The notes under the pieces were generated by a model that worked only from the letters and a program-made list of their open reading frames with translations, did not search any database and was not told where the DNA came from. This document shows positions 38,777 through 54,152 of a DNA stretch of 64,000 bases, one piece after another (the first letter of the stretch is position 1; each line of letters opens with the position of its first letter). The translations under genes were made by a program, and so were the position numbers. The DNA comes from Kineosporia sp. R_H_3 (GTDB lineage Bacteria; Actinomycetota; Actinomycetes; Actinomycetales; Kineosporiaceae): contig NZ_MWLL01000013.1 of NCBI RefSeq assembly GCF_002198675.1, positions 1 to 64,000 of the forward strand, given 5' to 3'.

Positions 38777-40642
38777 TCAGAGCCCAATGATGCTGTGGAT
38801 CGTGTGCAGCTCGTCCGAGGTGAGGTCAGTGAATCGAATGCCGACCTCTGCCTCCACATCGCTGGTGGTACGGGCGATGCAGCCTCTGATGCGCAAGGCG
38901 CGGCCGTCGATGACGAGTGCTGCCGTGAGCGGTGTCCCCGGGGGTGGGGCGGGCGTGTGCGGCTCGCTGTCGTCGAGGCGGCAACGCAGACCTGTGGTGC
39001 TCATGTCGATGAGTCGGGCTGGCAATTGGCGGCCGTCGATGTCGATGGTGGCGGTGCCGGTGACGCTGTGGCGCTCTGCGGCGCGGCGTTCCAGGCGTTC
39101 GGTGAGGGTGCCCATCTCGTGGACGCGGGTGATGGCGGTGGCTAGGGCATCGTCGAGGTGAGCGACGGCTTCGAACTGTTCGGCGGCAACCTGAGTGAGT
39201 GCGGCCGTGGCGTCGTCGAGGGTTCCGATGTTGGTGCCGACAGTACTGATGGCCAGCCCGACGCGGCCGGCGTCCGCCTCGAGGGCTGCCAGCGTGGTGC
39301 TGATGCGTTCGGTGGAGGAGGCGGCCGTCGTGGCCAAGCTCTTCACCTCGGTAGCAACGACGCTGAATCCTTGGCCAGCGGTCCCTGCGCGAGCGGCCTC
39401 GATGGTTGCGTTGAGTGCGAGCAGCTTTGTCTGCTCGGCGACGCTTCCGATGAGTGTCGCCATCGAAGCGACCTCGCGGAGGCTGTTGCCGAGGGAAGCG
39501 ACGTCCTGGTCGGCGGCGCGAGTGTCCGCGACGACGCCCCGGGTGACGATGTCTGTCGCTGCGACCCGGGACTCGATGGCACCGGCTGCGCGGCGAACGG
39601 CGTCGACGTGTTCGGCGAGCGTCGACAGCTCGGTCAGGACTCCGGCCGCAGTGTCGTCGATGATCGCCTGGGCGCGCATGCGGACGAACTGCTCTGCGGC
39701 GCGTTGGTGCTCGAAGCCGGCGGCCATCTGGGCCTCGCGGTCGGCGTGCGCTGCGGAGATCTCGGCGTCCCGTGCCCGAAGGGAATCGAGCATGTTGTTG
39801 AATGCCCGCGCCACAGCGGCCAGCTCCTCGTCGCCCGATTCGGGAAGGCGATCGTGGCGGCCGGTCGCCGTGTCGGGCCCGGTGTCAGTTCCGTTGCGGG
39901 TCCCGGGTCCGGTCGTGGCGCCTGTGTGGGCGATCGCCAGCACACGGGCTCGCAAGAGCCGCAGCGGGCCAAGGACGGCGAACCGTGTCCCGAGAGCCAG
40001 GGCTGCGACCAGAAGCGTGCCCACGACCACCGAGCCGATGGCGAGCAGCCGCACCCGGGTCTGGCGCTCGTCGAGGTCGGCCAGGTCCTGCGTGGCAGAC
40101 TCGGTCGCGGCGTCACGGGCCTGGTCCAGCGCGGCCATCAGGGTGTTCGACGCTTCCAGGTTGTCCCGGGTCGCTACCCGCACCGCGCCGTGCAGGTCAC
40201 CGCTGCCGACCAGGCGCAGCGTCTGGTCGGCGTAGCCGTCGAACGCGGCCAGGGCGTCGTCCACTGCGGTCAGGGCGGCTGGCAGAGGGCCGGGATGATC
40301 CGTGATGGTGGCCAGCTGTCGGGCGGTCGCCAGGTCGCTGTGGAGCGCAGCACGTGCTGCCTGGGCCTGGACACGGGTCTCGGACGCGAGTTCGTCGATG
40401 CGGCCGTCCCGGTTGGCCTCTGCATCGAGCATCACGGCGACGTACATGTTCATCTGGTCGTCGTAGGCGTAGAACTCCGCTCGCATCGAAGCGACCCGAG
40501 TCTCGAGCGCCGCGGTGACCGAGCGGTACTCCTTGAGGTGCTGCGAGGTCCTGTCCGCCTGGTGGAACACCAGCCCCGACACCGCGACGGTGCTCAGGAA
40601 CACGACGGAGAACCCGGTGTACGCCTTCCGTGCCAGTCCCAC
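38777..40642 (-). CDS. methyl-accepting chemotaxis-like receptor with C-terminal PilZ domain
   Basis: GTG 40642 has GGAGGAG upstream and gives 621 residues; the open frame beyond is antisense. TM1 (about residues 5-24) and TM2 (around 193-215) bracket a ~165-residue helical sensor. After a HAMP-like segment comes the signalling domain ([33 protein letters not shown]). The last ~110 residues form a PilZ domain, with RRAAERHSV and DMSTTGLRCRL as the c-di-GMP-binding RxxxR and [D/N]xSxxG motifs. It links chemosensory signalling to c-di-GMP. It is divergent from the SipW cluster. Confidence 0.9.
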   Translation of the reverse strand: MGLARKAYTGFSVVFLSTVAVSGLVFHQADRTSQHLKEYRSVTAALETRVASMRAEFYAYDDQMNMYVAVMLDAEANRDGRIDELASETRVQAQAARAALHSDLATARQLATITDHPGPLPAALTAVDDALAAFDGYADQTLRLVGSGDLHGAVRVATRDNLEASNTLMAALDQARDAATESATQDLADLDERQTRVRLLAIGSVVVGTLLVAALALGTRFAVLGPLRLLRARVLAIAHTGATTGPGTRNGTDTGPDTATGRHDRLPESGDEELAAVARAFNNMLDSLRARDAEISAAHADREAQMAAGFEHQRAAEQFVRMRAQAIIDDTAAGVLTELSTLAEHVDAVRRAAGAIESRVAATDIVTRGVVADTRAADQDVASLGNSLREVASMATLIGSVAEQTKLLALNATIEAARAGTAGQGFSVVATEVKSLATTAASSTERISTTLAALEADAGRVGLAISTVGTNIGTLDDATAALTQVAAEQFEAVAHLDDALATAITRVHEMGTLTERLERRAAERHSVTGTATIDIDGRQLPARLIDMSTTGLRCRLDDSEPHTPAPPPGTPLTAALVIDGRALRIRGCIARTTSDVEAEVGIRFTDLTSDELHTIHSIIGL

Positions 40643-40777
40643 TCCTGCTCCTCCGCCTCGGTGACCCCCAGGCCGCGTCGCCGCGGTCACGGAGAAGATC
40701 TCGGCCGGAGGACGAGTGACCTTGACGTTCACACGCTCATGGCTCAAGGAGATCGTCCTGTATGGCGATGATCTCCC

Positions 40778-41947
40778 GTGTCCCCCGGTCGTGGAGCAGG
40801 ATGGCGCCGGACGGCGGCTGTCCTCGGCGCTGCCGCCATGACCTTGTCGCTGTCTGCCCTGTCCGGGACGTCGGCGGTCTTCTCGGGGGTCACCGACGCC
40901 GGCGTGAGCAGTTTCACCGTCGGCTACTTCGCCTTCGACACCGCGGTGATCAGCACTTGGGCCGGCACGGGGGTCTCCGGCTACGCGGGCGACGGGGGGA
41001 TCGCCACCTCGGCGAAGTTCCTTCAGCCGAGCCAGATCGCAGTGGACGCCGGGGGCAACCTCTATGTCGCGGACATCAGCAACAACCGTGTCCGCAAGAT
41101 CACTGCAGCCGGCGTCATCAGCACGATCGCCGGCACCGGCGCGGCGGGCTACTCCGGAGACGGAGGCGCTGCGACCAGCGCGCAGCTCGACGCCCCGCGC
41201 GGCGTCGCGCTGGATGCCGCAGGCGCTCTGTACATCACGGATGGCGGCAACCACCGTATCCGCAAGGTCAGCCCCGCAGGCACGATCACCACCGTGGCCG
41301 GCAACGGAACGGCAGGCTTCTCCGGTGACGGCGGACCCGCCTCCGCGGCCATGGTCAACCTGCCCCGCGGCATCGCGAGCGACACCAGCCACGACGTCGT
41401 CTACTTCGTCGACAGCCTCAACTTTCGCGTCCGGAAGATCGATGCGAGCGGCAGCATCAGCACCGTCGCCGGCGTCGGGACCAGCGGCTTCTCCGGTGAC
41501 GGTGGCCCGGCGACAGCGGCGCAGATCAGCGAGTCCTACGACCTGACCCTCGGCGGCAGCGGCTGCTTGTACCTGCCCGACACAGGCAATCATCGGCTGA
41601 GGACCTTCTGCCCCGGTGGGACCATCAGCACCGTCGCCGGCTCCGGTCTTGCGGGCTCAACCGGAGACGGGGGACCCGCGATCTCCGCCCGACTCAATGG
41701 TCCCTCCGGCGCGGCCGTCGACTCGGCCGGCGTCATCTACCTCGCGGATCGCTACAACAACCGGCTCCGGAAGATCACTCCAGCCGGGGTGATCACTACC
41801 GTCACCGGCAACGGGGCTGCCAGCTCGACCGGGGACGGCGGACCAGCCAGCTCCGCGACGGTCTACGGCCCGAGGTCGATCGTTCTCTACGGCACGTACC
41901 TGTACCTCGTCGAGCAGGACGGACAGCGGGTCCGCAGACTCGCGTAG
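40778..41947 (+). CDS. NHL-repeat secreted protein with SipW-type signal
   Basis: The 389-residue product starts with RRTAAVLGAAAMTLSLSALS then GTSAVFSG, a signal of the kind cleaved by SipW-like peptidases. It continues with at least five beta-propeller repeats of the form GxGxxGYSGDGGxATxAxL / VDxAGxLYVADxxNxRVRKI, so a full propeller is likely. GTG 40778 is the first start in frame, but an excellent AAGGAG serves ATG 40762 in another frame. Residues from that ATG (MAMISRVPRSWSR) could be the real N-terminus joined by a one-base indel near 40800. It is the first gene of the SipW module and is probably a surface or matrix protein. Confidence 0.8.
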   Translation: MSPGRGAGWRRTAAVLGAAAMTLSLSALSGTSAVFSGVTDAGVSSFTVGYFAFDTAVISTWAGTGVSGYAGDGGIATSAKFLQPSQIAVDAGGNLYVADISNNRVRKITAAGVISTIAGTGAAGYSGDGGAATSAQLDAPRGVALDAAGALYITDGGNHRIRKVSPAGTITTVAGNGTAGFSGDGGPASAAMVNLPRGIASDTSHDVVYFVDSLNFRVRKIDASGSISTVAGVGTSGFSGDGGPATAAQISESYDLTLGGSGCLYLPDTGNHRLRTFCPGGTISTVAGSGLAGSTGDGGPAISARLNGPSGAAVDSAGVIYLADRYNNRLRKITPAGVITTVTGNGAASSTGDGGPASSATVYGPRSIVLYGTYLYLVEQDGQRVRRLA

Positions 41948-42763: not shown

Positions 42764-43485
42764 ACGCCCGAAAGGCCGTTCGAAAGCTCCTGATCGTCTA
42801 CGTCAGTGCCATCTACGTCCTCCTGGCGGCGGCCAATGCTCCGCGGCTCATCGGCTGGACCCCGACCGTCGTGCTCTCCGGATCCATGCGTCCGTCCATC
42901 CACGCGGGCGACGTCGTCGTCCTCGAACCGGTCCGCAGGGGCGACGTCGTCTCCGTCGGAGACGTCATCACCGTGAGCGCACCGGACACGCCCGGAGGCA
43001 CGTACCTGCATCGCGTCGTCGCCACATCCGTCACAGGAACGCTCGTGACCCGTGGGGACGCAAACCGCCAGGACGACTTCCCAGCCGTTGACCGGGGACT
43101 CGTCAGAGGCCGCACACGTCTGGTGCTGCCCTTCGTCGGCGCCCCCTACCTCGCGCTCCGCGACGGTGACCCCGCACCGCTGGTCGCTACGGCTGCCCCG
43201 CTCCTGCTTCTCGCCCGAGTACGTCCACCCTCACGCAGGCGACCGCGGACTGCGCAGTCACGGCGTCGTGCGGTCGGCATCGGCGATCGAGCGGCCAACG
43301 TGAGCGTCGCCGACCGAGGGGAAGCGCAGACACCCTCTAGGGCTTTGGTCCCGGGACGGCGGCCGGCTGGGACTACTGCGCACGACTCGGGCAACCTCCT
43401 GGTGAGCGTCACCATTCAAGCGCGCGACGCGTGGGGTCGAATGCTCACTGTGGATCGGAACCAGCCTGGCAAGGGGCCGCGATGA
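42760..43485 (+). CDS. sipW: signal peptidase I, SipW/ER type
   Basis: From GTG 42760 the product is 241 residues. An N-terminal membrane helix ([17 protein letters not shown], about 11-27) is followed by the catalytic serine in SGSMRP (Ser42), His84 in YLHRVV replacing the usual lysine, and RGDANRQDD (Asp100). The Ser-His arrangement is that of archaeal/ER/SipW signal peptidases. A second hydrophobic stretch is near residue 145 ([13 protein letters not shown]). The C-terminal ~80 residues are basic and low-complexity. It should process the two neighbouring SipW-type substrates. Confidence 0.88.
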
Positions 43486-44717
43486 CGCGCACGCGGAGAG
43501 CGGCCGCTCGAACAGACGCGCTGCTGACGGCCATCTCGACGATCACGGCCGTGGCCGGATCGATCGCGAACGGAGACCTTGAAGCGAGGATCCCGCCGTT
43601 GGGTCTCGCCGAGACCGACGCGGACGTCGAGCGTGCACTTCGCACCGCGGTCAACGGCATGCTCGATGTCGTCGATGCGTACATGCGCGAGACCGCGGCC
43701 GCGATCGTCGCCGCGAGCCAGCAGCAGTTCCACCGTCGACTTCTCGAGGAAGGACTTCGGGGAGCCTTCCTCGACGGTGCACGGATCATCGAGAGCGGTC
43801 GTGTGGCCATGGAAGCAGCCCACGACGCCGCAGTGTCCGCTGCCGAGTCCCGTCGAGATCTCGCACAGCAACTGGAGACGACACTGCTCTCCTTGACGGA
43901 CGAGATGTCCTCGGCCGCGACTTCGATGGGCACGACCGCTACCGGGGTCGCAGCGTTCGCCGGGGAGGCACGCTGCGAGGCGCAACAGGCCCTCAGCACC
44001 GTGGAGTCGCTGCGTTCGAGCACCGACGACATCCGTTCCGCGGTCGACCTGATCACCCAGATCGCGGCGCAGACGCGTCTGCTCGCGCTCAACGCCACCA
44101 TCGAGGCTGCCCGCGCCGGCGACCACGGACGTGGATTCGCCGTCGTCGCCACCGAGGTCAAGGCCCTCGCCGACGAGTCGACCGACTCCTCCCAGACCAT
44201 CATCGACGGCGTTACCGCAGTCAGAGGAGCCGCAGAGTCCACCATCGGCGTCCTGGAGACCGTCACGAACCGGATCACCGACATGAGCCACCAGGTCGAG
44301 GAGATCGCCGCCGCCGTTCAAGGGGACGGCAACGGCGAAGGCCTCGTCCCCGTCGCCCAACGCCTGGCCACCCAGGTCGCCGGCTTCGTGGAGGCGATTC
44401 GGGCCGCCGAGCGGCGCGGTGCCCGCCGAGCGACCGTACGAAGCCCTGTCCAGGTTCACCTCGGTGACCGCAAGGTCAACGGGATCCTGAACAACCTCAG
44501 CCTGACCGGTGCGGCATTCGAACTGCCCGCGACCGCGGGCCCGCAGGCGGGCGCCAAGGCTCGCCTCACCCTCGACACCCCCGCCGGGCCGCTGGACTTC
44601 ACCTGCGTCGTCCTGCGTGTGGAAGCGAGTGACCCTGACCAGGTCAGCGTCGCTGCCCGCATCGTCTACAAACGCCCACCCTACGAACAGGCGCTGTCAG
44701 CGCTCATGGGCGGGTGA
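43482..44717 (+). CDS. soluble methyl-accepting-type protein with PilZ domain
   Basis: ATG 43482 overlaps the peptidase stop (ATGA); 411 residues. No membrane helix is seen. An N-terminal HAMP-like region ([34 protein letters not shown]) leads to the chemoreceptor signalling core [20 protein letters not shown] and [14 protein letters not shown]. The C-terminal PilZ domain has RRGARRATV and [11 protein letters not shown] (NxSxxG). It is a cytoplasmic relative of the receptor at 38777-40642. Coupling to the SipW module suggests that c-di-GMP and chemosensory input control assembly of the surface structure, which is inference. Confidence 0.88.
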
Positions 44718-45510: not shown

Positions 45511-47844
45511 ATGCAGTTGAGAACGAGTGTGACGGCTGATCCAGCGTTGGCAGAGGCGGAGGTGCATCGCGTGCGGAGCGGACCCGTGCGTCAACGCGGC
45601 GTGACCTTCGGTAGCACCTGGTCGCTCTCTGCTGTGAGGGCCATCTCCTGGGCAGTCCCGTGCGCGGGGGTGGGGTGGATCCGCTTCTCGCCGCCGACAA
45701 CTGGGCCCGAAGTTTCGAGCACAGTCGCCGTCGCGGTCGTCGGAGTTCTGTTCCTTCTGCTCATCGGCCGGGTGACGGTGACCGCGGCCCGCCGCCGCGC
45801 TGCAGGTGCCCCGTTGTGGGCACTGGCGTTCGGGCTCGTTCTATGGGCCGGTGGATCGGCTGTGCTCAACTCGACGGCCCAGCCCGAGACCGTGTCGTTC
45901 CCGGCGCCGGGAGAGTGGCTGTTCCTCGCCGCGTACATCGGGTTCTCCGCGTTCTTGGTCTTGGACCGCGCCGGCGCGACACAGGCCGCGGGCGGCGGAT
46001 GGCTCGACGGACTGATCATCGTCGGAGGGACGGCCTGCGTCGCGCTCGTGGCGGTTCTGACTCCCTTCGCGGCCGATCCCGGTGGCGCCCTGCCGCTGCT
46101 CGTGGCGTTGATCTACCCGCTGCTGGACGTCACGCTGCTGCTTCTGGTGGTTGCGCAGATGGCGTTGCGGCAGCGGCCTGTGGGCGGGCGTGGCCTAGTG
46201 CTGGCGGCAGCGTTCGTCGTCCTCGGCATCGCCGACACCAGCCTTGTGGCGAGTGCCCGATCGGGGTCGTACCAGTCCGGTGAACTCTTCGACGTCACCT
46301 GGTGCGTGGGCTTCCTGCTGCTCGTCGAAGCGGCCTGTCACCGCGCGGGCAGAACCGTGCCGGACGACGTGACGCAGCCCAAGCCGGGGGCGATCCCGAT
46401 CATCCTCGCGGCCACGGTTGCGTTGGTGACGCTGCTGCCTCAGCAGGCCACCGGTATCCGTCTCGTCGTGGTGGCCCCCGCACTGGTCACTCTGCTCGCG
46501 GCGGGGCTGCGGTTGGGGCTGGCGCTTCGCCAGGCCCAGCAGCTGAACGAGGCGTTGCTTCTGTCCAGGACCGACGACCTGACCGGGCTGCCGAACCGAC
46601 GCGCGTTGAACGACCTGCTGGGCAGCGACCGCGACTCGGGCGGGCACGGTCTGCTGCTCCTCGATCTGGACGGGTTCAAGGAGATCAACGACACCCTCGG
46701 GCATGCGGCCGGCGACGCTGTCCTGAGAGCGATCGGCAGTCGGATCCGGGCCGCGGTCGACGCGTCCGCGCTGGTCGTGAGGCTCGGCGGTGACGAATTC
46801 GCCGTAGCAGTGCCCCAAGACGACCCGGTCCGGCTCACGGAGCTGGCCTTCCGGCTGCGGGACGCGGTCCGCAAGCCGGTGCGCGTGGACGGGCTCGAGG
46901 TCTGTCTCGACGTATCGATCGGCATCGCCGTCCGTGACGATGGCACCGCCGGAGTCGGTGGCCTCCTGCGTCGTGCTGATGTCGCGATGTACCAGGCGAA
47001 GACCGGCCGCGCCGGCGTTCTGGTCTACGACGCCGCGCGCGACGACTTCTCCCGGGAGCGGCTGCGGATCGCAGAGGAGCTGCGGCGCGGAATCGACTCC
47101 GGCGAGATCGTTGTCTGGTACCAGCCGAAGGTCGACGCAACCACAGGAGCGCCGACAGGCGTCGAGGCGCTCGTCCGCTGGTCGCACCCCAAGGACGGGC
47201 TCCTCCCACCGGCGGCGTTCCTCCCGGCCGCTCGTCGCACCGGTCTCATGCCTGCCCTGACCCGGGCGGTGCTCGCCCAGGTGATCAGCGACCTCGCGCG
47301 CTGGCGATCGGACGGCCTCGACATGCACGCGGCGGTCAACGTCGCCCCTGCCGAGCTGCTCGCGCCGGCCGTGATGTCCGACCTCTTCGGCATGATCGCT
47401 CGCGCGGGCCTCGGCGACGGGAGTCTGGTCATCGAGGTCACCGAGGACTCATTCCTCGCGGACCCGGACCGCGCCCGCGAGGTGATCGAGGCGATCGGAG
47501 CACGAGGCATCGAAGTGGCCATCGACGACTTCGGGACCGGCTACTCCTCCCTGGCCTACCTCAGGGACCTCCCCGTCCAAGAGCTGAAGATCGACCGATC
47601 CTTCGTATCGGACATCCTCACCAACCCTCGCAACGAGATGATCGTCAGGACCACCCTCGAGCTCGGGCGCGGTCTCGGTATGCGGACGGTTGCGGAAGGG
47701 GTCGAGGACGAAGTCATCGCAGAGCGACTGCGCGAGCTGGGCGTCGATGAACTGCAGGGTTACCACTTCGCGCGTCCCATGCCACCGGCACACCTGGCGA
47801 CATGGCTCGTGGAGCGAACGGCCCGCACGGTCACACGTTCTTGA
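45511..47844 (+). CDS. multi-pass membrane GGDEF-EAL protein
   Basis: The 777-residue protein starts at ATG 45511. The first ~340 residues hold about nine membrane helices, with conserved-looking elements EWLFLAAYIGFSAFLVLDRA, YPLLDVTLLLLVV and ELFDVTWCVGFLLLVEA shared with the protein at 50661. This is a membrane sensor domain found fused to GGDEF-EAL in actinobacteria. GGDEF (RTDDLTGLPNRRAL, RLGGDEFAVAV) is intact but has no RxxD site. EAL (VEALVRWSHPKDGLL, IDDFGTGYSSLAYLRDLPVQ, ELKIDRSFV) is intact. The 3' end overlaps the convergent gene at 47831 by 14 bp. Confidence 0.92.
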   Translation: MQLRTSVTADPALAEAEVHRVRSGPVRQRGVTFGSTWSLSAVRAISWAVPCAGVGWIRFSPPTTGPEVSSTVAVAVVGVLFLLLIGRVTVTAARRRAAGAPLWALAFGLVLWAGGSAVLNSTAQPETVSFPAPGEWLFLAAYIGFSAFLVLDRAGATQAAGGGWLDGLIIVGGTACVALVAVLTPFAADPGGALPLLVALIYPLLDVTLLLLVVAQMALRQRPVGGRGLVLAAAFVVLGIADTSLVASARSGSYQSGELFDVTWCVGFLLLVEAACHRAGRTVPDDVTQPKPGAIPIILAATVALVTLLPQQATGIRLVVVAPALVTLLAAGLRLGLALRQAQQLNEALLLSRTDDLTGLPNRRALNDLLGSDRDSGGHGLLLLDLDGFKEINDTLGHAAGDAVLRAIGSRIRAAVDASALVVRLGGDEFAVAVPQDDPVRLTELAFRLRDAVRKPVRVDGLEVCLDVSIGIAVRDDGTAGVGGLLRRADVAMYQAKTGRAGVLVYDAARDDFSRERLRIAEELRRGIDSGEIVVWYQPKVDATTGAPTGVEALVRWSHPKDGLLPPAAFLPAARRTGLMPALTRAVLAQVISDLARWRSDGLDMHAAVNVAPAELLAPAVMSDLFGMIARAGLGDGSLVIEVTEDSFLADPDRAREVIEAIGARGIEVAIDDFGTGYSSLAYLRDLPVQELKIDRSFVSDILTNPRNEMIVRTTLELGRGLGMRTVAEGVEDEVIAERLRELGVDELQGYHFARPMPPAHLATWLVERTARTVTRS

Positions 47845-48610
47845 CCTCCGACGATGAGCTCTCAGCGGCGCTGAGGTCGACGACATCGCGAGTGTCCAGG
47901 GCAAGGCCTTCGTCATCTGGTAGCAGAACGTCCGTCAGGCCGTGCCCCAGCGTGATCAGGCGATGTGCCTCAGGGTCCGATGCGCGCTGCATGTCGACAA
48001 GGGTCGGCATATGGGCATACACCGGCGCGCACGCCGGTGACCCCATGTACAGCTCGGGCGCCGTCCCCGGGATGGCGTGCAGCGGCAGACCCACCATGGA
48101 CAGCAGGGATCGCGCGCGCCGGTCGATGATCGCGACGATCCATGAGCAGTCGTTGACCCGGGTGCCATTGATGAGCCCGTAGTACAAGGCGCCGGCGACG
48201 ACGCGCCCGGCCGCTCCGAGCTCCCGACGCACCGTGATCGTCGCGATGTCCCAGGTGTGGTCAGGATCCAGTCCCGCGGCGGAGACGGCGCGAGGTGCGT
48301 CCACGGACCACGGCGGGGATCCGATGTCTGCCAGCGTCTTCAGCCCGCGCCCGCCCGGGATGATCACGCGGCTGACTCCGACCACCAATCCGTCGTCGCG
48401 CTCGACCGCCAAGAAGGCCGTCTGGTCGGCGTAGCCTCCGTAGGCCTCGTCCAGCAACTGCTCGGTGTCGCCGTACCAATGGGCAAGGACGTCCAGTTCG
48501 CAGCGACGGACCGATGCGTCCGCGGACCGCCCCATCGTCAGGCGGTACATGGGAGAGGGCTGAATGGGAGAGGGCTGAATGGGAGAGGGCTGCATGGGAG
48601 AGGGCTGCAT
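47831..48610 (-). CDS. LuxI/FeeM-like N-acyltransferase candidate
   Basis: The product is 259 residues from ATG 48610, preceded by GGAG. The first 20 residues are repeats of QPSPM/I. The core (DTEQLLDEAYGGYADQTAFL, then AVERDDGLVVGVSRVIIPGG, WDIATITVRREL, WIVAIIDRRARSLLSMVGLP, IPGTAPELYMGSPACAPVYA) follows the GNAT-type fold of autoinducer synthases and N-acyl amino acid synthases. Similarity is by pattern only. It lies 96 bp downstream of a PLP decarboxylase on the same strand, so the pair may decarboxylate an amino acid and acylate the amine. Confidence 0.6.
   Translation of the reverse strand: MQPSPMQPSPIQPSPIQPSPMYRLTMGRSADASVRRCELDVLAHWYGDTEQLLDEAYGGYADQTAFLAVERDDGLVVGVSRVIIPGGRGLKTLADIGSPPWSVDAPRAVSAAGLDPDHTWDIATITVRRELGAAGRVVAGALYYGLINGTRVNDCSWIVAIIDRRARSLLSMVGLPLHAIPGTAPELYMGSPACAPVYAHMPTLVDMQRASDPEAHRLITLGHGLTDVLLPDDEGLALDTRDVVDLSAAESSSSEVKNV
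48549..48608. repeat. four 15-bp tandem repeats at a gene start
   Basis: Units 48549-48563, 48564-48578, 48579-48593 and 48594-48608 are identical except for one base. On the minus strand each encodes QPSP plus Met or Ile, so several in-frame ATG codons are available. Changes in copy number keep the frame. Confidence 0.92.
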
Positions 48611-48706
48611 GGGGCTCCGTTCAGGCCGGTTGGCGTGGCCAGTGTCCAGGCGGTGCAGAGACCGGGGACCACGGCTCGGGCGAGCAAGGTCAGGAGTGCG
48701 TGCGCC

Positions 48707-50311
48707 CTAGCCATCCGCGAGTCGTTCTGCCGTTGCGACGATGGTGGCCACGGCCCTGAGCAGGTGATCTTCGTGCGTGTAGGCGGATCCGATGGCCGCG
48801 CGTAACGTGACACGTCCCTGCAGGACGGTGGTCGTGACGTAGACCTGGCCGGACTGCTGGAGGCGGCGAGCCAGCTCCTGGTTGAAGGAGTCGCCGTCGA
48901 TTCCGGCGGGGGCGGCACGGTAGGTCGCCACGGTGAGGTCCGGAATCGGGCCGACCCGGAACAGCCGGTGCTCCGCGAGCGCAGCGTGGAAGCTGCGGGC
49001 CAGGTTCAGCTTCTCGCTGAGAGCGTCCCGGAACGCTTGCACGCCTGACAGTTGCAGGGGCAACCACAGGCCGAGCGCTCGGAAGGGCCGTGTGAGCTCC
49101 ATGCCCAGGTCGGCCGGCGACGGTACGGCCCCCGGACCGTCCTGAGCATCGGCACCGCAACCATGTGAGAGCGGGGGTCTGGCCGGGAGGTAGCTCGCGT
49201 CGTGCGAGAAGGTCGACGTCAGGACCTGAGGGTCACGCACCAGGATGGCGCCAGTCCCGTACGGCAGGAACAGAGTCTTGTGAGGGTCGACGGTCACACT
49301 GTCGGCATCACCGAGACCGCGCAGTCGCGGGCGGGCTTCGGGAGCGAGCGCGAACAGGCCTCCGTACGCAGCGTCCACGTGCACCCAGGCCCCGGCGTCG
49401 CGTGCGGCCGACACCACGTCGTCGAGCGGGTCGATGCTACCGCTGCCGGTGGTGCCGGCAGTGGCCACCACCAACCAGGGCCGTAGTCCGCTCGTGGCGT
49501 CGACCGAGAGGAGGCGGCGCAGCGCCACCGAGTCCATCCGATGATTCCCGTCGGACGGCACGACGCGGACGGGACAGCCTCCGAGCCCCGCGAAGCGAAG
49601 CGCCCGGTCCACGCTGTGGTGCCGGTGCTCACCCACGTACACTGAACATGCCCCGGCGTCCTGCGGTTGGACACCCATCCAGTCACGAGCGGCGACGACG
49701 GCAGTGAGCGTCGCGCTGCTCCCGCCCGAGGTGAGCGTGCCCGACGATCCGACGGGCAGGCCCACCGCCTCGCACAGCCACTGAACGACCACCTGTTCGA
49801 GTTCTGCCGCACCCGGCGAGATGGACTCCATCGCGCTGTACGGGTTGAGGACCGACCCCAGGAAGTCACCGAGCGCCGCCGCGTACAGTCCGCCCGCCGG
49901 AAGGTAGCCCAGATAGCCCGGAGATCGGGTGTTCACCCCTGACTGCCAGACCCGGCGGGTCAGCACGTCCAGCGTGCTGCTGATGTCGCGTGGGCTCTCC
50001 GTGACGCCCAGCTCCCTCGACGACGGCGGCTGGGAAGTTCGATCTTGCGTGGCGTCCGGGGTCTCAGGGCCATCACGGAGGACCACTCCTGCCGGCGTCG
50101 CGTGGACCTCTGGGTCTGAGGGCCAGACGGTGGGTGCCGACCGGCTCGTCACCAGCACGTGCTGAGCGAAGGCACCGACGGCTGCTGTCAGCGCGCTCAC
50201 CTCGGTCGATCCCGGTTCGAGCAGGGCCGCCGCCTCGACAAGAACGGGGGGTTCGCGGAGGTCGACCGGCTGCGCATCCAGGCTGGGGCCTCTGCCTTCG
50301 ACGTCGGTCAT
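48707..50311 (-). CDS. PLP-dependent group II decarboxylase
   Basis: ATG 50311 after GGGGGGA gives 534 residues; TTG 50350 would add 13. The N-terminal substrate region has NTRSPGYLGYLPAGGLYAAA and LNPYSAMESISPGAAELE. The PLP site has SGTLTSGGSSATLTAVVAAR, HHSVDRAL, HVDAAYGGLFAL and the Schiff-base lysine in SVTVDPHKTLFLPYGTGA. These are the marks of aromatic-L-amino-acid, tyrosine, glutamate and diaminobutyrate decarboxylases; the exact substrate is not visible. It is first in an operon with the LuxI/FeeM-like gene and diverges from a GGDEF-EAL gene. Confidence 0.9.
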   Translation of the reverse strand: MTDVEGRGPSLDAQPVDLREPPVLVEAAALLEPGSTEVSALTAAVGAFAQHVLVTSRSAPTVWPSDPEVHATPAGVVLRDGPETPDATQDRTSQPPSSRELGVTESPRDISSTLDVLTRRVWQSGVNTRSPGYLGYLPAGGLYAAALGDFLGSVLNPYSAMESISPGAAELEQVVVQWLCEAVGLPVGSSGTLTSGGSSATLTAVVAARDWMGVQPQDAGACSVYVGEHRHHSVDRALRFAGLGGCPVRVVPSDGNHRMDSVALRRLLSVDATSGLRPWLVVATAGTTGSGSIDPLDDVVSAARDAGAWVHVDAAYGGLFALAPEARPRLRGLGDADSVTVDPHKTLFLPYGTGAILVRDPQVLTSTFSHDASYLPARPPLSHGCGADAQDGPGAVPSPADLGMELTRPFRALGLWLPLQLSGVQAFRDALSEKLNLARSFHAALAEHRLFRVGPIPDLTVATYRAAPAGIDGDSFNQELARRLQQSGQVYVTTTVLQGRVTLRAAIGSAYTHEDHLLRAVATIVATAERLADG

Positions 50312-50660
50312 CGATCCCCCCGAGGTGGGCAAGAGGTGAGCGGGTGTCAACGAGGCGTCGGGCCTTGTGCGGGCGTCTCAGGAGTATCACATTGAGTGGT
50401 GTATTTCCTACCCTTGGTTACTGCAATCCTTGCATGTACTAGACCGCCGACACGGGTCGATGCGCGCTTGGTCGCCTCCCTCCGCGGGGTGGGGATCTCG
50501 GCCCGGCGGTCGGTGCCGCCGCGGCGCACCGGGCGGAGAGCGCCGTCGCAGGTCGAGCCAGCCGTGTTCGCCGGACTGCCTTGCGTCTGAGGATCAAGGT
50601 TCCCGAGATTCTGCCGAGAACCTTGTCACCGTGAAGGTTCACATGTCGGAGGAGTGGTCG
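50312..50660. other. divergent intergenic region
   Basis: This region carries the promoters of the decarboxylase operon and of the GGDEF-EAL gene. A more A/T-rich stretch is at 50385-50450. GGAGGAG at 50648-50654 is the ribosome site for ATG 50661. No gene is supported. Confidence 0.5.
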
Positions 50661-53069
50661 ATGGGCGTTGTCAGGCCTTCTGATGCTCCCGCCGGACGGC
50701 CCGGAGCTGCGCTGTCGAGGGCTGGTTCTCTCCCTGAGCGGGCCGCCATGGCCGGGGCAGTCCTCAGCACCGTCGTCTTCGCGGTGCTGACGCATCGAGA
50801 GAACTCGACGCTGATGCTGTGGCGGGACGCTGGCCTGTACCCCCTGGTCTTCGGCCTCGCTGCCGTGGCCGCCGGCCTGAGGGCCGCACGTCGCGGTCCC
50901 GTGCTGCCGTGGGCCGCACTCGCTGCGGGGCTTGCTGCGAGTACGGCTGCCAACGTCTACTACACCCTGGTTCTGGCACCTATGGCGACGCCGCCGTATC
51001 CGTCGTGGTCCGACGCCGGGTACCTGGTCTTCTTTCCCTGTGTCTACGTCACAGTCCTGGCCCTGCTGCGGCAGCGGATGCCCCGCTGGCACGCCAGTCT
51101 GGGCCTGGACGGCGCGTTGGCGGCGACTGTCGCCGCGGCCGGCTGCGCAGGATTCGTCCTTGCCCCAGTCCTGGACATCAGCGGGGACCGACCTGCGGTC
51201 GCCATCACGAACCTTGCCTATCCGATCGGGGACCTGCTACTCCTCGCCGTTCTCACAGCAGGCAGCCTGGTCATCGGCGGCCGGTTCGACCTCGAGCTCG
51301 CGCTAGTCCTGCTCGGTCTCACCTTCATGTCCATCGGCGACTTCGTCTACACGGTCGTGGACACCGCAGGCACCTACACCGAAGGTGGCTACCTGGACCT
51401 CACCTGGCTGGTCGGTGTCTGCCTGCTTGCAGCGGCTGCGACGGCCCGGAGTCGTTGCGGCTCAGCCGAGGGAAGACAAGACCGGCAGCCCACAACGGTG
51501 ACGTCGTCCCCGTCCGCCGGTGTCCCCGAACATGCCTGGCAGTCCGACGCTTTCGGCGCGTGGTGGCGACTGCTGACCATGCCTGCGGTCGGCACGCTGT
51601 CGGCCCTGGCACTGCTGTCACCACCAGTGGCGGGCGTCATCAACGCGCCCGCGCGATGGCTGGCCATCGCCGCTCTGCTCGTAGCGTCGCTGCGGACAGC
51701 GCTGACCTATCGAGACCTGTACGCGTTGCAGGACGCCCGTCGCCAGGCTCACACTGACGACCTCACCGGCCTGACGAATCGCCGCGGGTTCATGGCAGCC
51801 GCCCAGATGCAGCTGTCGAGCGACACCCGGCCAACGGCGCTGCTGCTCCTGGACCTCGACGGGTTCAAGGAGGTGAACGACAGCCTGGGGCACAGCGCCG
51901 GTGACGCCCTTCTGGTCGTGATTGCCGGCCGGCTGGCGCGCGCCCTCGCCCCGCCGAACGTCCCGGGCTCATGCGCGCTGGGCCGTCTCGGCGGCGACGA
52001 GTTCGCCGTGCTCGTGACAGGAGCGGACACGCACATGGCGGAAGCCGCGGCCCAGCTGCTGCGCAACTCGCTGCTCGAACCATTGACGATCGATGGCGTG
52101 AAGGTCCATGTCACGGGCAGCGTCGGGGTGGCCGTCGCGGGCGACCCGAGCCACAGTTCCGCCGACGGGCTGCAGCGCGACGCTTCGCACCTGCTGCGTC
52201 GTGCCGACATAGCGATGTATCGCGCGAAGACCACACGCACGGGCGTGGCCGTCGATGCCGGTGACCCCGACGACGACAGCGAGTCCCGACTCGAGCGCAT
52301 CGCCGCCCTGCGTGAGGGGCTGCAGCACGGACAGTTCGTCCTCCACTACCAACCCAAGATCCAGCTCGGGAGCGGCGACGTCACGGGGGTGGAAGCTCTC
52401 GTCCGCTGGAACCACCCGCAGCAGGGACTTGTCGCTCCCGGATCCTTTCTGCCGCTCGTCGAGTCCGCCGGTCTCATGCCTGAGCTCACCCGGCAGGTGC
52501 TCGAGCAAGCCATCGCGCAGGCCGGGTTCTGGCAGGCAGTCGGCCTTGACCTGACGGTGGCGGTGAACCTCCCCAGTTCCGTCGTCGTCGACGAAGACCT
52601 CCCCGAGAAGATCCGCTCGATTCTCGAGGCACACGGTGTGGCACCAGAGCGCCTCCAGATCGAGATCACCGAGGAGACGCTGCTGAGTGACCGACAACGG
52701 GCGCGGCAGGTCTTGGCTGCTCTTCGCACCCGGGGCGTGCGCGTGGCCATCGACGACTACGGTGTGGGCTACTCCAGCCTCGCCTACCTGCGCGAGCTAC
52801 CTGTCGACGAGCTCAAGCTCGATCGGTCCTTCGTCGCACCTATGACGCAGGACCCGCGGGCCGCCGCCATTGTGCGGTCAACCGTCGACCTGGCCCACTC
52901 TCTCGGCCTGCACATCGTCGCCGAGGGGGTCGAGCATCTGGAAGCCGCTCAAGCGCTGGCAGACTTCGGTTGCGACTCGGCTCAGGGCTTTCATTTCGCC
53001 CGACCGCTCACCGCGGCGGACCTGACTGTCTGGCTGAGGGCGCGTCAGTCGAACGTGGTGGCTCGATAG
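50661..53069 (+). CDS. multi-pass membrane GGDEF-EAL protein
   Basis: ATG 50661, six bases after GGAGGAG, gives 802 residues; ATG 50643 is an alternative. About ten membrane helices span residues 30-360, with YPSWSDAGYLVFFPCVYVTV, LAYPIGDLLLLAVLTAGSLV and GYLDLTWLVGVCLLAAAA resembling the membrane domain of the protein at 45511. GGDEF (HTDDLTGLTNRRGF, RLGGDEFAVLV) lacks RxxD. EAL (VEALVRWNHPQQGLV, IDDYGVGYSSLAYLRELPVD) is intact. Codons and layout indicate a paralogue of 45511 sensing perhaps a similar membrane-associated signal. Confidence 0.92.
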   Translation: MGVVRPSDAPAGRPGAALSRAGSLPERAAMAGAVLSTVVFAVLTHRENSTLMLWRDAGLYPLVFGLAAVAAGLRAARRGPVLPWAALAAGLAASTAANVYYTLVLAPMATPPYPSWSDAGYLVFFPCVYVTVLALLRQRMPRWHASLGLDGALAATVAAAGCAGFVLAPVLDISGDRPAVAITNLAYPIGDLLLLAVLTAGSLVIGGRFDLELALVLLGLTFMSIGDFVYTVVDTAGTYTEGGYLDLTWLVGVCLLAAAATARSRCGSAEGRQDRQPTTVTSSPSAGVPEHAWQSDAFGAWWRLLTMPAVGTLSALALLSPPVAGVINAPARWLAIAALLVASLRTALTYRDLYALQDARRQAHTDDLTGLTNRRGFMAAAQMQLSSDTRPTALLLLDLDGFKEVNDSLGHSAGDALLVVIAGRLARALAPPNVPGSCALGRLGGDEFAVLVTGADTHMAEAAAQLLRNSLLEPLTIDGVKVHVTGSVGVAVAGDPSHSSADGLQRDASHLLRRADIAMYRAKTTRTGVAVDAGDPDDDSESRLERIAALREGLQHGQFVLHYQPKIQLGSGDVTGVEALVRWNHPQQGLVAPGSFLPLVESAGLMPELTRQVLEQAIAQAGFWQAVGLDLTVAVNLPSSVVVDEDLPEKIRSILEAHGVAPERLQIEITEETLLSDRQRARQVLAALRTRGVRVAIDDYGVGYSSLAYLRELPVDELKLDRSFVAPMTQDPRAAAIVRSTVDLAHSLGLHIVAEGVEHLEAAQALADFGCDSAQGFHFARPLTAADLTVWLRARQSNVVAR

Positions 53070-53270
53070 GTTCGTGCAGGCACGCTTGTGCTGGCGGCAC
53101 GGGGCAGTTGCACGGGGTGGCTGCCGGGGAGCCTCCGCGTCCAGGGCCCTCGACTCGTCCAGGTGCGAGAGCGCGTCCGCACCGGACAGCATGATGCGTG
53201 CCGGCCGGCCGCGGTGCAGGGACCGCCTGGTCGCCGTGCCGACACGATCATCGGCCGGCTTACGAGTCGA

Positions 53271-53282
53271 TACGTTTGGGCC
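53271..53282 (+). promoter_or_regulatory. -10 element of a leaderless promoter
   Basis: TACGTT (53271-53276) fits TANNNT and ends six bases before GTG 53283. No ribosome site precedes this start, so a leaderless transcript is likely. Confidence 0.4.
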
Positions 53283-54152
53283 GTGACCGATCGATGGACG
53301 TGGCCGCCGGACTCGGCAGGCGCCGTCTGGGACGCGGTTCCGACCATTCTGGTTCTGGTGAGTCGGACAGGGGCCATCCGTTCGGTGAACAACGCGTTCG
53401 TCCAGACCTGTGTCATGGGCGTGGACGAGGTGGTCGGCAAGCCTGTGTGGGAGGTGCTCCCGGTTGAGGTCGGCGTCGCAGCGCTTGCACTGTGGGAAAC
53501 GGCGATCATCGGATCGGTGAACGTGCCGGAGCAGGTGCTCACCGACCAGAATGGCGCCGTGCGCCGCATCTCCTGGTCGCTGACAAGAGTCGTGCTCGGG
53601 AGGATGGAGCCGCACTTGCTCGTGACCGGTGTCGACCTCACCGCAGAGCGCAGCGCCCAGGCCCGGCTCTTGGACCGTGTGGAACGAGATCCCCTCACAG
53701 GGATGGGGAACCGGCTGTACGTCCGCAGGGTCCTGACGGAATGGCTGGATGCTGTTCACGGCAGCGAGGTCGCGATCTTCTACTGCGACCTCGAGCGGTT
53801 CAAGGCTGTGAATGACCAACACGGACATCGTGCCGGAGATGTGGTGCTGCGATCCGCCGCAACCAGGCTCGCCGAGGCGCTCGGGCCCGAGGGGGTCGTT
53901 GCTCGGCTGGGTGGAGACGAGTTCGTCGCTCTGGTCCGTGCACGGGACTCCGCGGACCTGCGGCGCCTCACGCACGAGCTGCGCAACCGGGTAGCGATCC
54001 CGATCGACATCGGGCCGTCGACGGTCAAGGTCGGGCTCAGCGTGGGGTTGCACGTGGCCCAGAGAGGGGCGGATACCGATCAGGCGCTGCAGTGCGCCGA
54101 CGAGGCTATGTACCGGAGCAAGCGTCCTTGGCGGTTTCGCCGTCGCAGATAG
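53283..54152 (+). CDS. PAS-GGDEF diguanylate cyclase
   Basis: From GTG 53283 the product is 289 residues, soluble. A PAS domain (VPTILVLVSRTGAIRSVNNA, about residues 18-125) precedes GGDEF (RDPLTGMGNRLYVRRVL, CDLERFKAVNDQHGHRAGDV). The active site RLGGDEFVALV is intact and an RxxD I-site is absent. There is no EAL domain, so it is a probable c-di-GMP synthase regulated through PAS. It is followed by the convergent V4R gene after 73 bp. The open frame extends to 53088, but the promoter evidence favours 53283. Confidence 0.88.
   Translation: MTDRWTWPPDSAGAVWDAVPTILVLVSRTGAIRSVNNAFVQTCVMGVDEVVGKPVWEVLPVEVGVAALALWETAIIGSVNVPEQVLTDQNGAVRRISWSLTRVVLGRMEPHLLVTGVDLTAERSAQARLLDRVERDPLTGMGNRLYVRRVLTEWLDAVHGSEVAIFYCDLERFKAVNDQHGHRAGDVVLRSAATRLAEALGPEGVVARLGGDEFVALVRARDSADLRRLTHELRNRVAIPIDIGPSTVKVGLSVGLHVAQRGADTDQALQCADEAMYRSKRPWRFRRRR

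What the first reader, a model, noticed from the sequence alone, without database searches (positions are those of the whole stretch)
47831..50311. Decarboxylase plus LuxI/FeeM-like synthase: possible amide signal
A group II decarboxylase and a GNAT-type protein with autoinducer-synthase-like order are in one operon between two GGDEF-EAL genes. Together they could make an N-acylated amine as a signal molecule, which would be a novel small-molecule circuit.
Basis: inference. Interest (0 to 1): 0.6.

Follow-up and report, generated by a model that had tools for sequence, protein, structure and literature searches.

The report
Amine-acylating signal module near c-di-GMP genes
In this actinobacterium a gene for an amine-making enzyme sits beside a gene for an enzyme shaped like the makers of bacterial signal molecules, and the pair recurs with membrane signalling genes in many relatives, which points to an undescribed chemical messenger system whose molecule still has to be found.

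Summary
Window 47831-48610 (-) encodes a 259-aa acyltransferase-like protein ("SYN") 96 bp downstream of a group II PLP decarboxylase; membrane GGDEF-EAL genes flank the pair. SYN has no Pfam match, but its AlphaFold model (pLDDT 91) fits FeeM (Z 16.2) and the AHL synthase LasI (Z 16.1) best, and its profile aligns with LuxI proteins (hhalign 97%). It is no ordinary LuxI: LuxI's Arg23 position is Glu in 89 of 89 SYNs.

The larger finding is the association. In 17 of 17 related loci a GGDEF-EAL gene adjoins SYN or its SpeD-SYN pair. In 10 of these an AdoMetDC/SpeD-like decarboxylase takes the PLP enzyme's place. A search begun from that decarboxylase found SYN beside it in 72 of 80 loci; of the 72, 53 have a GGDEF-EAL neighbour and 7 a histidine kinase of the 7TM kind (six Saccharibacteria/Patescibacteria, one Mycolicibacterium). 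The GGDEF-EAL partners share a membrane domain found in 7 of 38 paralogues.

Best reading (0.6): the decarboxylase makes an amine, SYN acylates it, and the membrane protein turns the product into c-di-GMP or phosphorelay output, like RpfF/RpfR with unrelated parts. Substrate, product and signalling are untested. My paper searches found no description.

The parts
47831..48610 (-). SYN: 259-aa LuxI/FeeM-like acyltransferase (GNAT superfamily)
   Evidence: ORF; AlphaFold2 model pLDDT 91.2; best structural matches FeeM Z 16.2 and LasI Z 16.1; hhalign to a LuxI profile 97%, E 9.6e-11
48707..50350 (-). Group II PLP-dependent amino-acid decarboxylase (in-frame ATG at 50311)
   Evidence: PF00282, 183.4 bits against cut-off 27; DPHK motif aligned with DAHK of 4obu
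45511..47844 (+). Membrane GGDEF-EAL protein GG1, convergent with SYN (3' ends overlap by 14 bp)
   Evidence: PF00990 and PF00563; GGDEF and EALVR motifs; a homologue adjoins SYN or the SpeD-SYN pair in 17 of 17 related loci
45601..46542 (+). N-terminal multi-helix membrane domain of GG1, proposed sensor
   Evidence: AlphaFold2 pLDDT 86.8, ten helices; strong matches in 7 of 58 relatives: the 6 SYN-positive genomes plus G007
50367..53069 (+). Second membrane GGDEF-EAL protein GG2, divergent from the decarboxylase; possible second receptor
   Evidence: PF00990 and PF00563; its N-terminal domain matches the profile of the Blastococcus-type partners, E 5.7e-36; no counterpart in L008
48549..48613 (.). 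15-bp tandem repeat (4.3 copies) covering the start of SYN, translated as QPSPM/QPSPI repeats
   Evidence: sequence

Best explanation
The locus is a small-molecule signalling module. Step 1 (inferred from family): the decarboxylase turns an amino acid into an amine; here it is a group II PLP enzyme, in most relatives found an AdoMetDC/SpeD-like pyruvoyl enzyme. Step 2 (fold predicted, reaction inferred): SYN, which has the LuxI/FeeM fold, transfers an acyl group from acyl-ACP or acyl-CoA to that amine. Step 3 (inferred): the N-acyl amine is sensed by the multi-helix membrane domain of the adjacent GGDEF-EAL protein, which changes c-di-GMP turnover; in Patescibacteria and Mycolicibacterium sphagni a histidine kinase with a 7TM-type N-terminus takes this place. 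Shown here: gene positions, predicted fold, conserved association, exchange of decarboxylase type, shared membrane domain. Not shown: substrate, product, release, binding, density dependence.
For: SYN fold: FeeM Z 16.2, LasI 16.1, TofI 15.2, BjaI 15.1 over 167-195 residues; best ordinary GNAT Z 15.0 over 140. Profile match to seven LuxI proteins, 97%, E 9.6e-11. GGDEF-EAL adjoining SYN or the SpeD-SYN pair in 17 of 17 loci from 16 genomes. SpeD-like gene adjacent in 10 of 17; PLP decarboxylase in L008 and, in an overlapping same-strand run PLPdec-GGDEF/EAL-SYN, in L036. G000, G002 and G621, which carry the PLP enzyme there, have no SpeD-like gene. Search begun from the SpeD-like gene: SYN beside it in 72 of 80 loci; of these, GGDEF-EAL within 300 bp in 53, in four arrangements, and a 7TM-type kinase in 7. 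The GGDEF-EAL partners form three groups (33, 22, 10) without a sampled paralogue inside, plus one single; 4 label changes against 31.4 shuffled. Their membrane domain: 65 of 66 partners, 7 of 38 paralogues. Over 58 relatives, strong matches to the GG1 membrane domain in 6 of 6 SYN-positive and 1 of 52 other genomes. LuxI Arg23 position is Glu in 89 of 89 SYNs, which fits an amine substrate without carboxylate.
Against: No chemistry was tested. SYN is below Pfam cut-offs where scanned. Five of 17 loci show no decarboxylase of either kind nearby (L037 is cut at the contig end), and the genomes of these five loci (G045, G060, G414, G551) have no SpeD-like gene, so a linked decarboxylase is not obligatory. 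Eight of 80 SpeD-like loci lack SYN; seven Actinoplanes-group loci have SYN but neither GGDEF-EAL nor the kinase within about 5 kb, and one of them, L103, has an amino-acid permease there. The membrane domain is not exclusive to SYN partners (7 of 38 paralogues) and the kinase N-terminus is not detectably homologous to it. The window's SYN departs from the family at sites 42, 48, 56 and 61. Counts are not corrected for shared ancestry; the 17-locus and 80-locus sets share at least four loci. Polyamine acetyltransferases of the same superfamily also match (Z 12.1).
Confidence: 0.6

Rival explanations
1. Polyamine homeostasis: the decarboxylase makes a polyamine (putrescine, agmatine or similar), SYN acetylates it for storage or export, and the GGDEF-EAL protein senses polyamine state. 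No secreted acyl signal exists.
For: SpeD-derived enzymes of known function make putrescine or agmatine (PMC10407285, abstract and section 7). Spermidine acetyltransferase SpeG is among the Foldseek matches (TM to target about 0.6) and a viral polyamine acetyltransferase, 3qb8, has VIA Z 12.1. An amino-acid permease lies near SYN in L103.
Against: The top VIA rows are FeeM and LuxI-type synthases over 166-197 residues, and no SpeG row is among the 50 shown (not an exclusion). LuxI-like sequence signal (the former not significant).
Confidence: 0.17
2. Lipid or surfactant biosynthesis: SYN makes an N-acyl amino acid or amine that serves as a membrane lipid or surfactant; the c-di-GMP enzyme only regulates production.
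For: FeeM, the best structural match, is an N-acyl amino acid synthase; c-di-GMP often controls surface traits (general knowledge).
Against: The second partner is repeatedly a membrane protein with a signalling output, of two unrelated kinds and with three separate GGDEF-EAL groups.
Confidence: 0.13
3. An AdoMet-derived signal: the SpeD-like enzyme makes decarboxylated AdoMet, which SYN acylates in place of AdoMet, giving a carboxylate-free relative of an AHL.
For: LuxI synthases use AdoMet (recalled); AdoMetDC family membership of the partner; Glu at the LuxI Arg23 site.
Against: The SpeD-like clade is separate from AdoMetDC-type proteins (99/96) and has Thr before the pyruvoyl serine, as in the group I take to be the ornithine decarboxylase type (short alignment). 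In the window a PLP amino-acid decarboxylase stands in its place, and none of that group is known to me to act on AdoMet.
Confidence: 0.05
4. Chance neighbours of unrelated function.
For: The window is rich in c-di-GMP and chemotaxis genes, so a GGDEF-EAL neighbour is less surprising there.
Against: 17 of 17 and 53 of 72 adjacency with rearranged gene order, against 6-36 EAL matches per genome in 9 genomes.
Confidence: 0.03

Closest known systems
RpfF/RpfR (BDSF) system of Burkholderia and relatives (PMC6361424, passages; others by listing)
   Same: A signal synthase gene adjacent to the gene of a GGDEF-EAL receptor whose phosphodiesterase activity the signal triggers (adjacency and BDSF effect).
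   Different: RpfR senses with a PAS domain and RpfF is an enoyl-CoA hydratase-type enzyme making a fatty acid (recalled; fatty-acid nature in the listed abstract); here the synthase is LuxI/FeeM-like with a decarboxylase partner and the proposed sensor is a membrane domain.
LuxI acyl-homoserine lactone synthases (LasI, EsaI, TofI, BjaI)
   Same: Fold (Z 12.5-16.1), profile similarity, conserved Phe27, Arg70 and acidic Glu101 positions.
   Different: Arg23, Trp33, Asp44 and Arg104 positions are Glu, Asn, Gly and Thr in 89, 82, 69 and 75 of 89 SYNs (LuxI invariant set and numbering recalled); partnered with a decarboxylase and a membrane signalling protein.
FeeM N-acyl amino acid synthase
   Same: Best structural match, Z 16.2 over 178 residues; two of 18 members have a weak PF21926 hit.
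   Different: Sub-threshold by sequence (16.9 against 27 bits in L004); FeeM acylates an amino acid, whereas the partner gene here suggests an amine.
SpeD-derived pyruvoyl ornithine and arginine decarboxylases (PMC10407285, PMC9992855)
   Same: AdoMet_dc family with conserved pyruvoyl Ser and Cys; Thr before the Ser and a His-Phe pair as in the group I take to be the ornithine type.
   Different: Separate clade; clustered with an acyltransferase and sensor genes. In PMC10407285 the words acyl and GGDEF do not occur in the main text and its clusters hold polyamine genes.

Membership tests
LuxI AHL synthase (PF00765) | LuxI fold | tested here: met
   LasI Z 16.1, rmsd 3.0, 178 aligned
LuxI AHL synthase (PF00765) | Reaches the family model | tested here: not met
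   No hit for the window protein; 6 of 18 members hit weakly, best E 0.0013, bits not shown; 13.1 bits against cut-off 24 for L005
LuxI AHL synthase (PF00765) | Invariant residues (recalled set R23, F27, W33, D44, D47, R70, E101, R104) | tested here: not met
   Phe27 87/89, Arg70 89/89, acid at 101 88/89, acid at 47 73/89; Arg23 is Glu 89/89, Trp33 Asn 82/89, Asp44 Gly 69/89, Arg104 Thr 75/89
LuxI AHL synthase (PF00765) | Makes acyl-homoserine lactone from AdoMet | not testable with these tools
   needs enzyme assay
FeeM N-acyl amino acid synthase (PF21926) | FeeM fold | tested here: met
   Z 16.2, rmsd 2.9, 178 aligned
FeeM N-acyl amino acid synthase (PF21926) | Reaches the family model | tested here: not met
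   0 hits for the window protein; best member 16.9 bits against 27; 2 of 18
Group II PLP decarboxylase (PF00282) | Family model and PLP lysine | tested here: met
   183.4 bits against 27; DPHK aligned to DAHK of 4obu
AdoMetDC/SpeD family (PF02675), for the partner in related loci | Family model, pyruvoyl Ser, catalytic Cys | tested here: met
   28.5, 33.7 and 29.9 bits against 25 in three scanned; Ser and Cys invariant in 10 of 10. The His at the AdoMetDC spacing (+5 from Ser) is not kept; a His sits at +3
Pyruvoyl ornithine decarboxylase SpeDC | Diagnostic Gln, Thr, Phe, Tyr (PMC10407285) | tested here: inconclusive
   Thr and Phe present, Gln and Tyr not, but positions were assigned by me from L153 because the figure is not held
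RpfF/RpfR-type synthase-receptor pair | Synthase gene next to a GGDEF-EAL gene | tested here: met
   16 of 17 loci directly beside SYN, L040 beside the SpeD-SYN pair
RpfF/RpfR-type synthase-receptor pair | RpfF-type synthase and PAS sensor | tested here: not met
   Synthase has the LuxI/FeeM fold; no PAS family listed for GG1 or GG2 at E up to 1
Quorum sensing | Released signal, sensed by the population | not testable with these tools
   needs culture work

The most novel reading that the evidence does not exclude
A separate class of bacterial chemical communication: N-acyl amines made by a dedicated decarboxylase plus a re-tooled LuxI/FeeM-like synthase whose carboxylate-binding side has been reversed, read directly by membrane receptors with c-di-GMP or histidine-kinase output, spread over Actinomycetota and Patescibacteria, where the synthase-kinase version would be an intercellular signal of ultra-small host-dependent bacteria.
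Probability: 0.45. Interest if true: 0.88.

Novelty: new variant of a known kind. Interest (0 to 1): 0.74.

Why it matters
Signal systems that feed straight into c-di-GMP are known in Gram-negative bacteria (RpfF/RpfR). A 2026 study of Actinomycetota describes luxI homologues in the genomes it examined as solitary, without LuxR partners, one Salinispora locus lying among sensing and stress genes (PMC13136126, passages only). The module here puts a synthase, its likely substrate supplier and its likely receptor in one locus, in named strains of genera such as Actinotalea, Blastococcus and Modestobacter, so signal, receptor and effect on c-di-GMP can be tested directly. The same gene pair with a histidine kinase in Saccharibacteria would be a rare lead on communication in that group. 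The exchange of a pyruvoyl for a PLP decarboxylase is a natural experiment on which amine is needed.

Tried and rejected
Weak SYN matches dropped before counting: L007 in G055 (31% identity, a stop inside) and L043 in G861 (E 2.7e-4, short stretch, not followed). The genome-contig scan with the window protein found no relative; neither did plasmids. The SYN alignment A3 was too divergent for a pattern scan, so I scanned with the SpeD-like alignment; the 80-locus census therefore sees only SpeD-type modules, and only the best 80 of 132 relatives.

A SpeD-like query found nothing in named phages, but 14 viral contigs carry a separate sister group (13 of 14 in the tree); I did not study their neighbours. 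PADLOC and PHROGs gave nothing for SYN and the decarboxylase. PDB by sequence: the SYN profile hit only LasI at E 0.17, not significant; the SpeD-like profile found no SpeD chain up to E 1.

The sensor model's nearest rows are GPCR- and rhodopsin-type 7TM bundles (best VIA Z 12.9, Foldseek E 0.43 or worse with unrelated chains), within what helical bundles may give by chance, so I claim no fold. A first tree took paralogues by too strict a motif and held 12, some probably in wrong frames; one search replaced it with 38 of 40 fetched paralogues (two fell out because no long enough catalytic region was cut; GG2 counts among the 38; the 40 are a part of 85 EAL matches in the four genomes used). 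In one search my branch test of the first group left out one row and failed; repeated with it, the group is one side of a branch (99).

L117 has a lone membrane protein between SpeD and a kinase that matches the sensor profile (E 3.6e-5 among 299 proteins), but hhalign gave it only 4.8% probability, though best of 14 hydrophobic proteins: suggestive only. L096 and L116 have a PLP decarboxylase about 3.6 kb from SpeD-SYN, 46% identical to that of L036: unexplained. Near the Actinoplanes-group SYNs, cluster c6 recurs in five loci; its L103 member is an amino-acid permease, other members lie partly in doubtful frames and were not scanned; a sulfotransferase and a glycosyltransferase also turned up there.
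Full report
What is in the window. SYN (47831-48610, -) lies 96 bp downstream of a group II PLP decarboxylase (48707-50350, -; ATG at 50311). The membrane GGDEF-EAL gene GG1 (45511-47844, +) converges on SYN with a 14-bp overlap of the 3' ends, and a second one, GG2 (50367-53069, +), starts on the other side of the decarboxylase. No promoter- or terminator-like site was found across the pair. The genome (G000, 7.26 Mb, 270 contigs) is unnamed; it has one SYN and no SpeD-like or AdoMet_dc match.

What SYN is. By sequence it matches no Pfam family, and across 18 homologues only weak hits to Autoind_synth (6 of 18, best E 0.0013), Acetyltransf_5 (3) and FeeM (2) appear. With an 18-sequence alignment AlphaFold2 gave a confident model (mean pLDDT 91.2). 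Foldseek ranks LasI first (E 7.4e-7). VIA-align gives FeeM Z 16.2 and LasI Z 16.1 over 178 residues, TofI 15.2 (167) and BjaI 15.1 (195); the best ordinary GNAT reaches 15.0 but over 140 residues. Rows within 1 Z are tied, so the argument rests on coverage as well as Z; a polyamine acetyltransferase (3qb8) is at Z 12.1. A profile of 89 SYN sequences aligns with seven plasmid-borne AHL synthases (fetched) at 97% probability, E 9.6e-11, over 141 columns. On that alignment LuxI Phe27, Arg70 and Glu101 correspond to Phe42 (87 of 89), Arg81 (89 of 89) and Asp/Glu121 (88 of 89), whereas Arg23, Trp33, Asp44 and Arg104 correspond to Glu38 (89 of 89), Asn48 (82), Gly58 (69) and Thr124 (75) (the LuxI residue set and numbering are recalled). 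I read this as a LuxI/FeeM-type acyltransferase with an altered amine side. The window's copy itself has Leu42, Asp48, Ala56 and Ala61 where the family mostly has Phe, Asn, Glu and Glu/Asp.

Conserved neighbourhood, from SYN. Searches of 58 relatives (7 hits), 396 genomes of the order (8), 394 of the class (11) and 296 of the phylum (3) (sets overlap, own genome included) show a patchy distribution. After dropping two weak matches (G055, G861), 17 loci from 16 genomes besides the window were examined. A GGDEF-EAL gene lies beside SYN in 16 and beside the SpeD-SYN pair in one (L040); a SpeD-like gene is adjacent in 10 of 17, a PLP decarboxylase is present in 2 of 17, and 5 of 17 show neither, one of these cut at the contig end. 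In L003, L004 and L005 the SpeD-like stop overlaps the SYN start (TGATG). In L036 the order PLPdec, GGDEF-EAL, SYN forms an overlapping same-strand run; its decarboxylase is only 31% identical to the window's, which suggests a separate recruitment. Among 24 genomes searched for the SpeD-like gene, it is present in exactly the 10 that have it beside SYN, and absent from G000, G002 and G621, which carry the PLP enzyme there. SYN-positive genomes G045, G060, G414 and G551 also lack it, as do the seven SYN-negative relatives included.

Conserved neighbourhood, from the decarboxylase. The SpeD-like family is PF02675 above cut-off in three scanned members with an invariant WETSGAHFYAW core in ten. 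A scan of genome contigs found 132 relatives, of which the best 80 were returned. SYN lies beside it in 72 of 80. Of these 72, 53 have a GGDEF-EAL gene within 300 bp of the pair (28 on the SYN side, 25 on the SpeD side), in four arrangements (26 convergent, 23 upstream in the same direction, 2 divergent, 2 downstream); 7 have a kinase similar to those of L081 and L102 (six Saccharibacteria or other Patescibacteria MAGs, and Mycolicibacterium sphagni); 12 have neither, of which 5 are cut close to SYN and 7 are Actinoplanes-group loci, three with a Ser/Thr-kinase-like gene downstream. Pfam was run on two of the seven kinases (both HisKA_7TM), on one response regulator nearby and on one Ser/Thr kinase.

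The receptor candidate. A tree of 66 SYN-associated and 38 paralogous GGDEF-EAL catalytic regions needs 4 label changes against 31.4 on shuffling (starred branches force 2). The associated proteins fall into three groups of 33, 22 and 10, each one side of a branch with no sampled paralogue inside (supports 99, 100, 98), plus L098 alone: a few recruitments, each kept with the pair. The N-terminal membrane domains of the three groups are homologous to each other (hhalign 95-96%) but not detectably to the kinase N-terminus. A combined profile, trained on most of them, finds 65 of 66 partners and 7 of 38 paralogues; the profile of the first group alone finds 16 of 22 and 3 of 10 members of the other two, and 5 of 38 paralogues. 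GG2 of the window has this domain too. Over the 58 relatives, strong matches to the GG1 domain (E below 1e-25) occur in 6 of 6 SYN-positive genomes and in 1 of 52 others, G007, where the gene stands without SYN or SpeD, next to what looks by eye like a glutamyl-tRNA synthetase gene (Fisher p 1.7e-7, not corrected for ancestry). Weaker matches (1e-10 to 1e-14) occur in five further SYN-negative genomes. The GGDEF string is intact in 69 and EALVR in 56 of 70 proteins.

Which amine. On a 70-row tree the SpeD-like family with its viral sister group (96/93) is separate from AdoMetDC-type proteins and from a group I take to be the ornithine-decarboxylase type. The alignment is short (113 columns). 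The family shares with that type a Thr before the pyruvoyl serine and a His-Phe pair. Known SpeD derivatives decarboxylate ornithine or arginine (PMC10407285: abstract, passages, section 7; PMC9992855: passages). A diamine such as putrescine is therefore my leading guess in SpeD-type modules; the PLP enzyme of the window could supply the same or another amine, its nearest solved relatives being decarboxylases of varied substrates.

Literature. Searches for combinations of SpeD/AdoMetDC, LuxI or autoinducer synthase, FeeM/N-acyl amino acid synthase, GGDEF, N-acyl putrescine and Saccharibacteria listed no description of this module; several listings were capped, and only open-licence PMC papers are held. 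PMC13136126 (passages only) reports luxI homologues in the Actinomycetota genomes it examined as solitary genes without LuxR partners; GGDEF and decarboxylase do not occur in its main text. The nearest working parallel is RpfF/RpfR.

Verdict. The module is best seen as a predicted signal synthase-receptor system that works like RpfF/RpfR with unrelated parts. The chemistry and the signalling are inference.

Noticed in passing
window 28647-30470, 35184-37553, 38777-41593, 43431-44717, 53088-54152: The surroundings are crowded with c-di-GMP and chemotaxis-type genes: a GGDEF-like gene, another GGDEF-EAL gene, two chemoreceptor-like proteins ending in PilZ-like domains and a PAS-GGDEF gene. Pfam was run only on 43431-44717 and 53088-54152; the EAL of 35184-37553 is; the rest is by eye.
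   Followed up: partly
window 48549-48613: A 15-bp tandem repeat spans the start of SYN and offers more than one in-frame ATG; copy number could vary the N-terminus.
   Followed up: no
window 30906-33530: Large ATPase-type regulator with a LuxR-like C-terminal helix-turn-helix by eye (no family search run).
   Followed up: no
L184-L197 (viral contigs): Viral contigs carry a sister group of the SpeD-like decarboxylase (37-45% identity, Glu instead of Thr before the serine in the 13 aligned); neighbours not examined.
   Followed up: partly
L061 7271-8563 and L114 6348-8626: In a Bdellovibrionales and a Micavibrio MAG the SpeD-like gene has no SYN but lies near a class I/II-type aminotransferase (Pfam run on L114 only); possibly a different pathway for the same decarboxylase.
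   Followed up: no
L117 4975-5817: A lone membrane protein between SpeD and a kinase in a Saccharibacteria locus weakly matches the sensor-domain profile; SYN was not found there.
   Followed up: partly
L238 6225-8582 (G007): A GGDEF-EAL protein with the SYN-type membrane domain but no SYN or decarboxylase found in the 13 kb held, like a solo receptor.
   Followed up: yes
L133 and L153 (G869 contig 43): Two adjacent SpeD-type genes in an unnamed actinobacterium, one AdoMetDC-like and one with the ornithine-decarboxylase-like motif.
   Followed up: no
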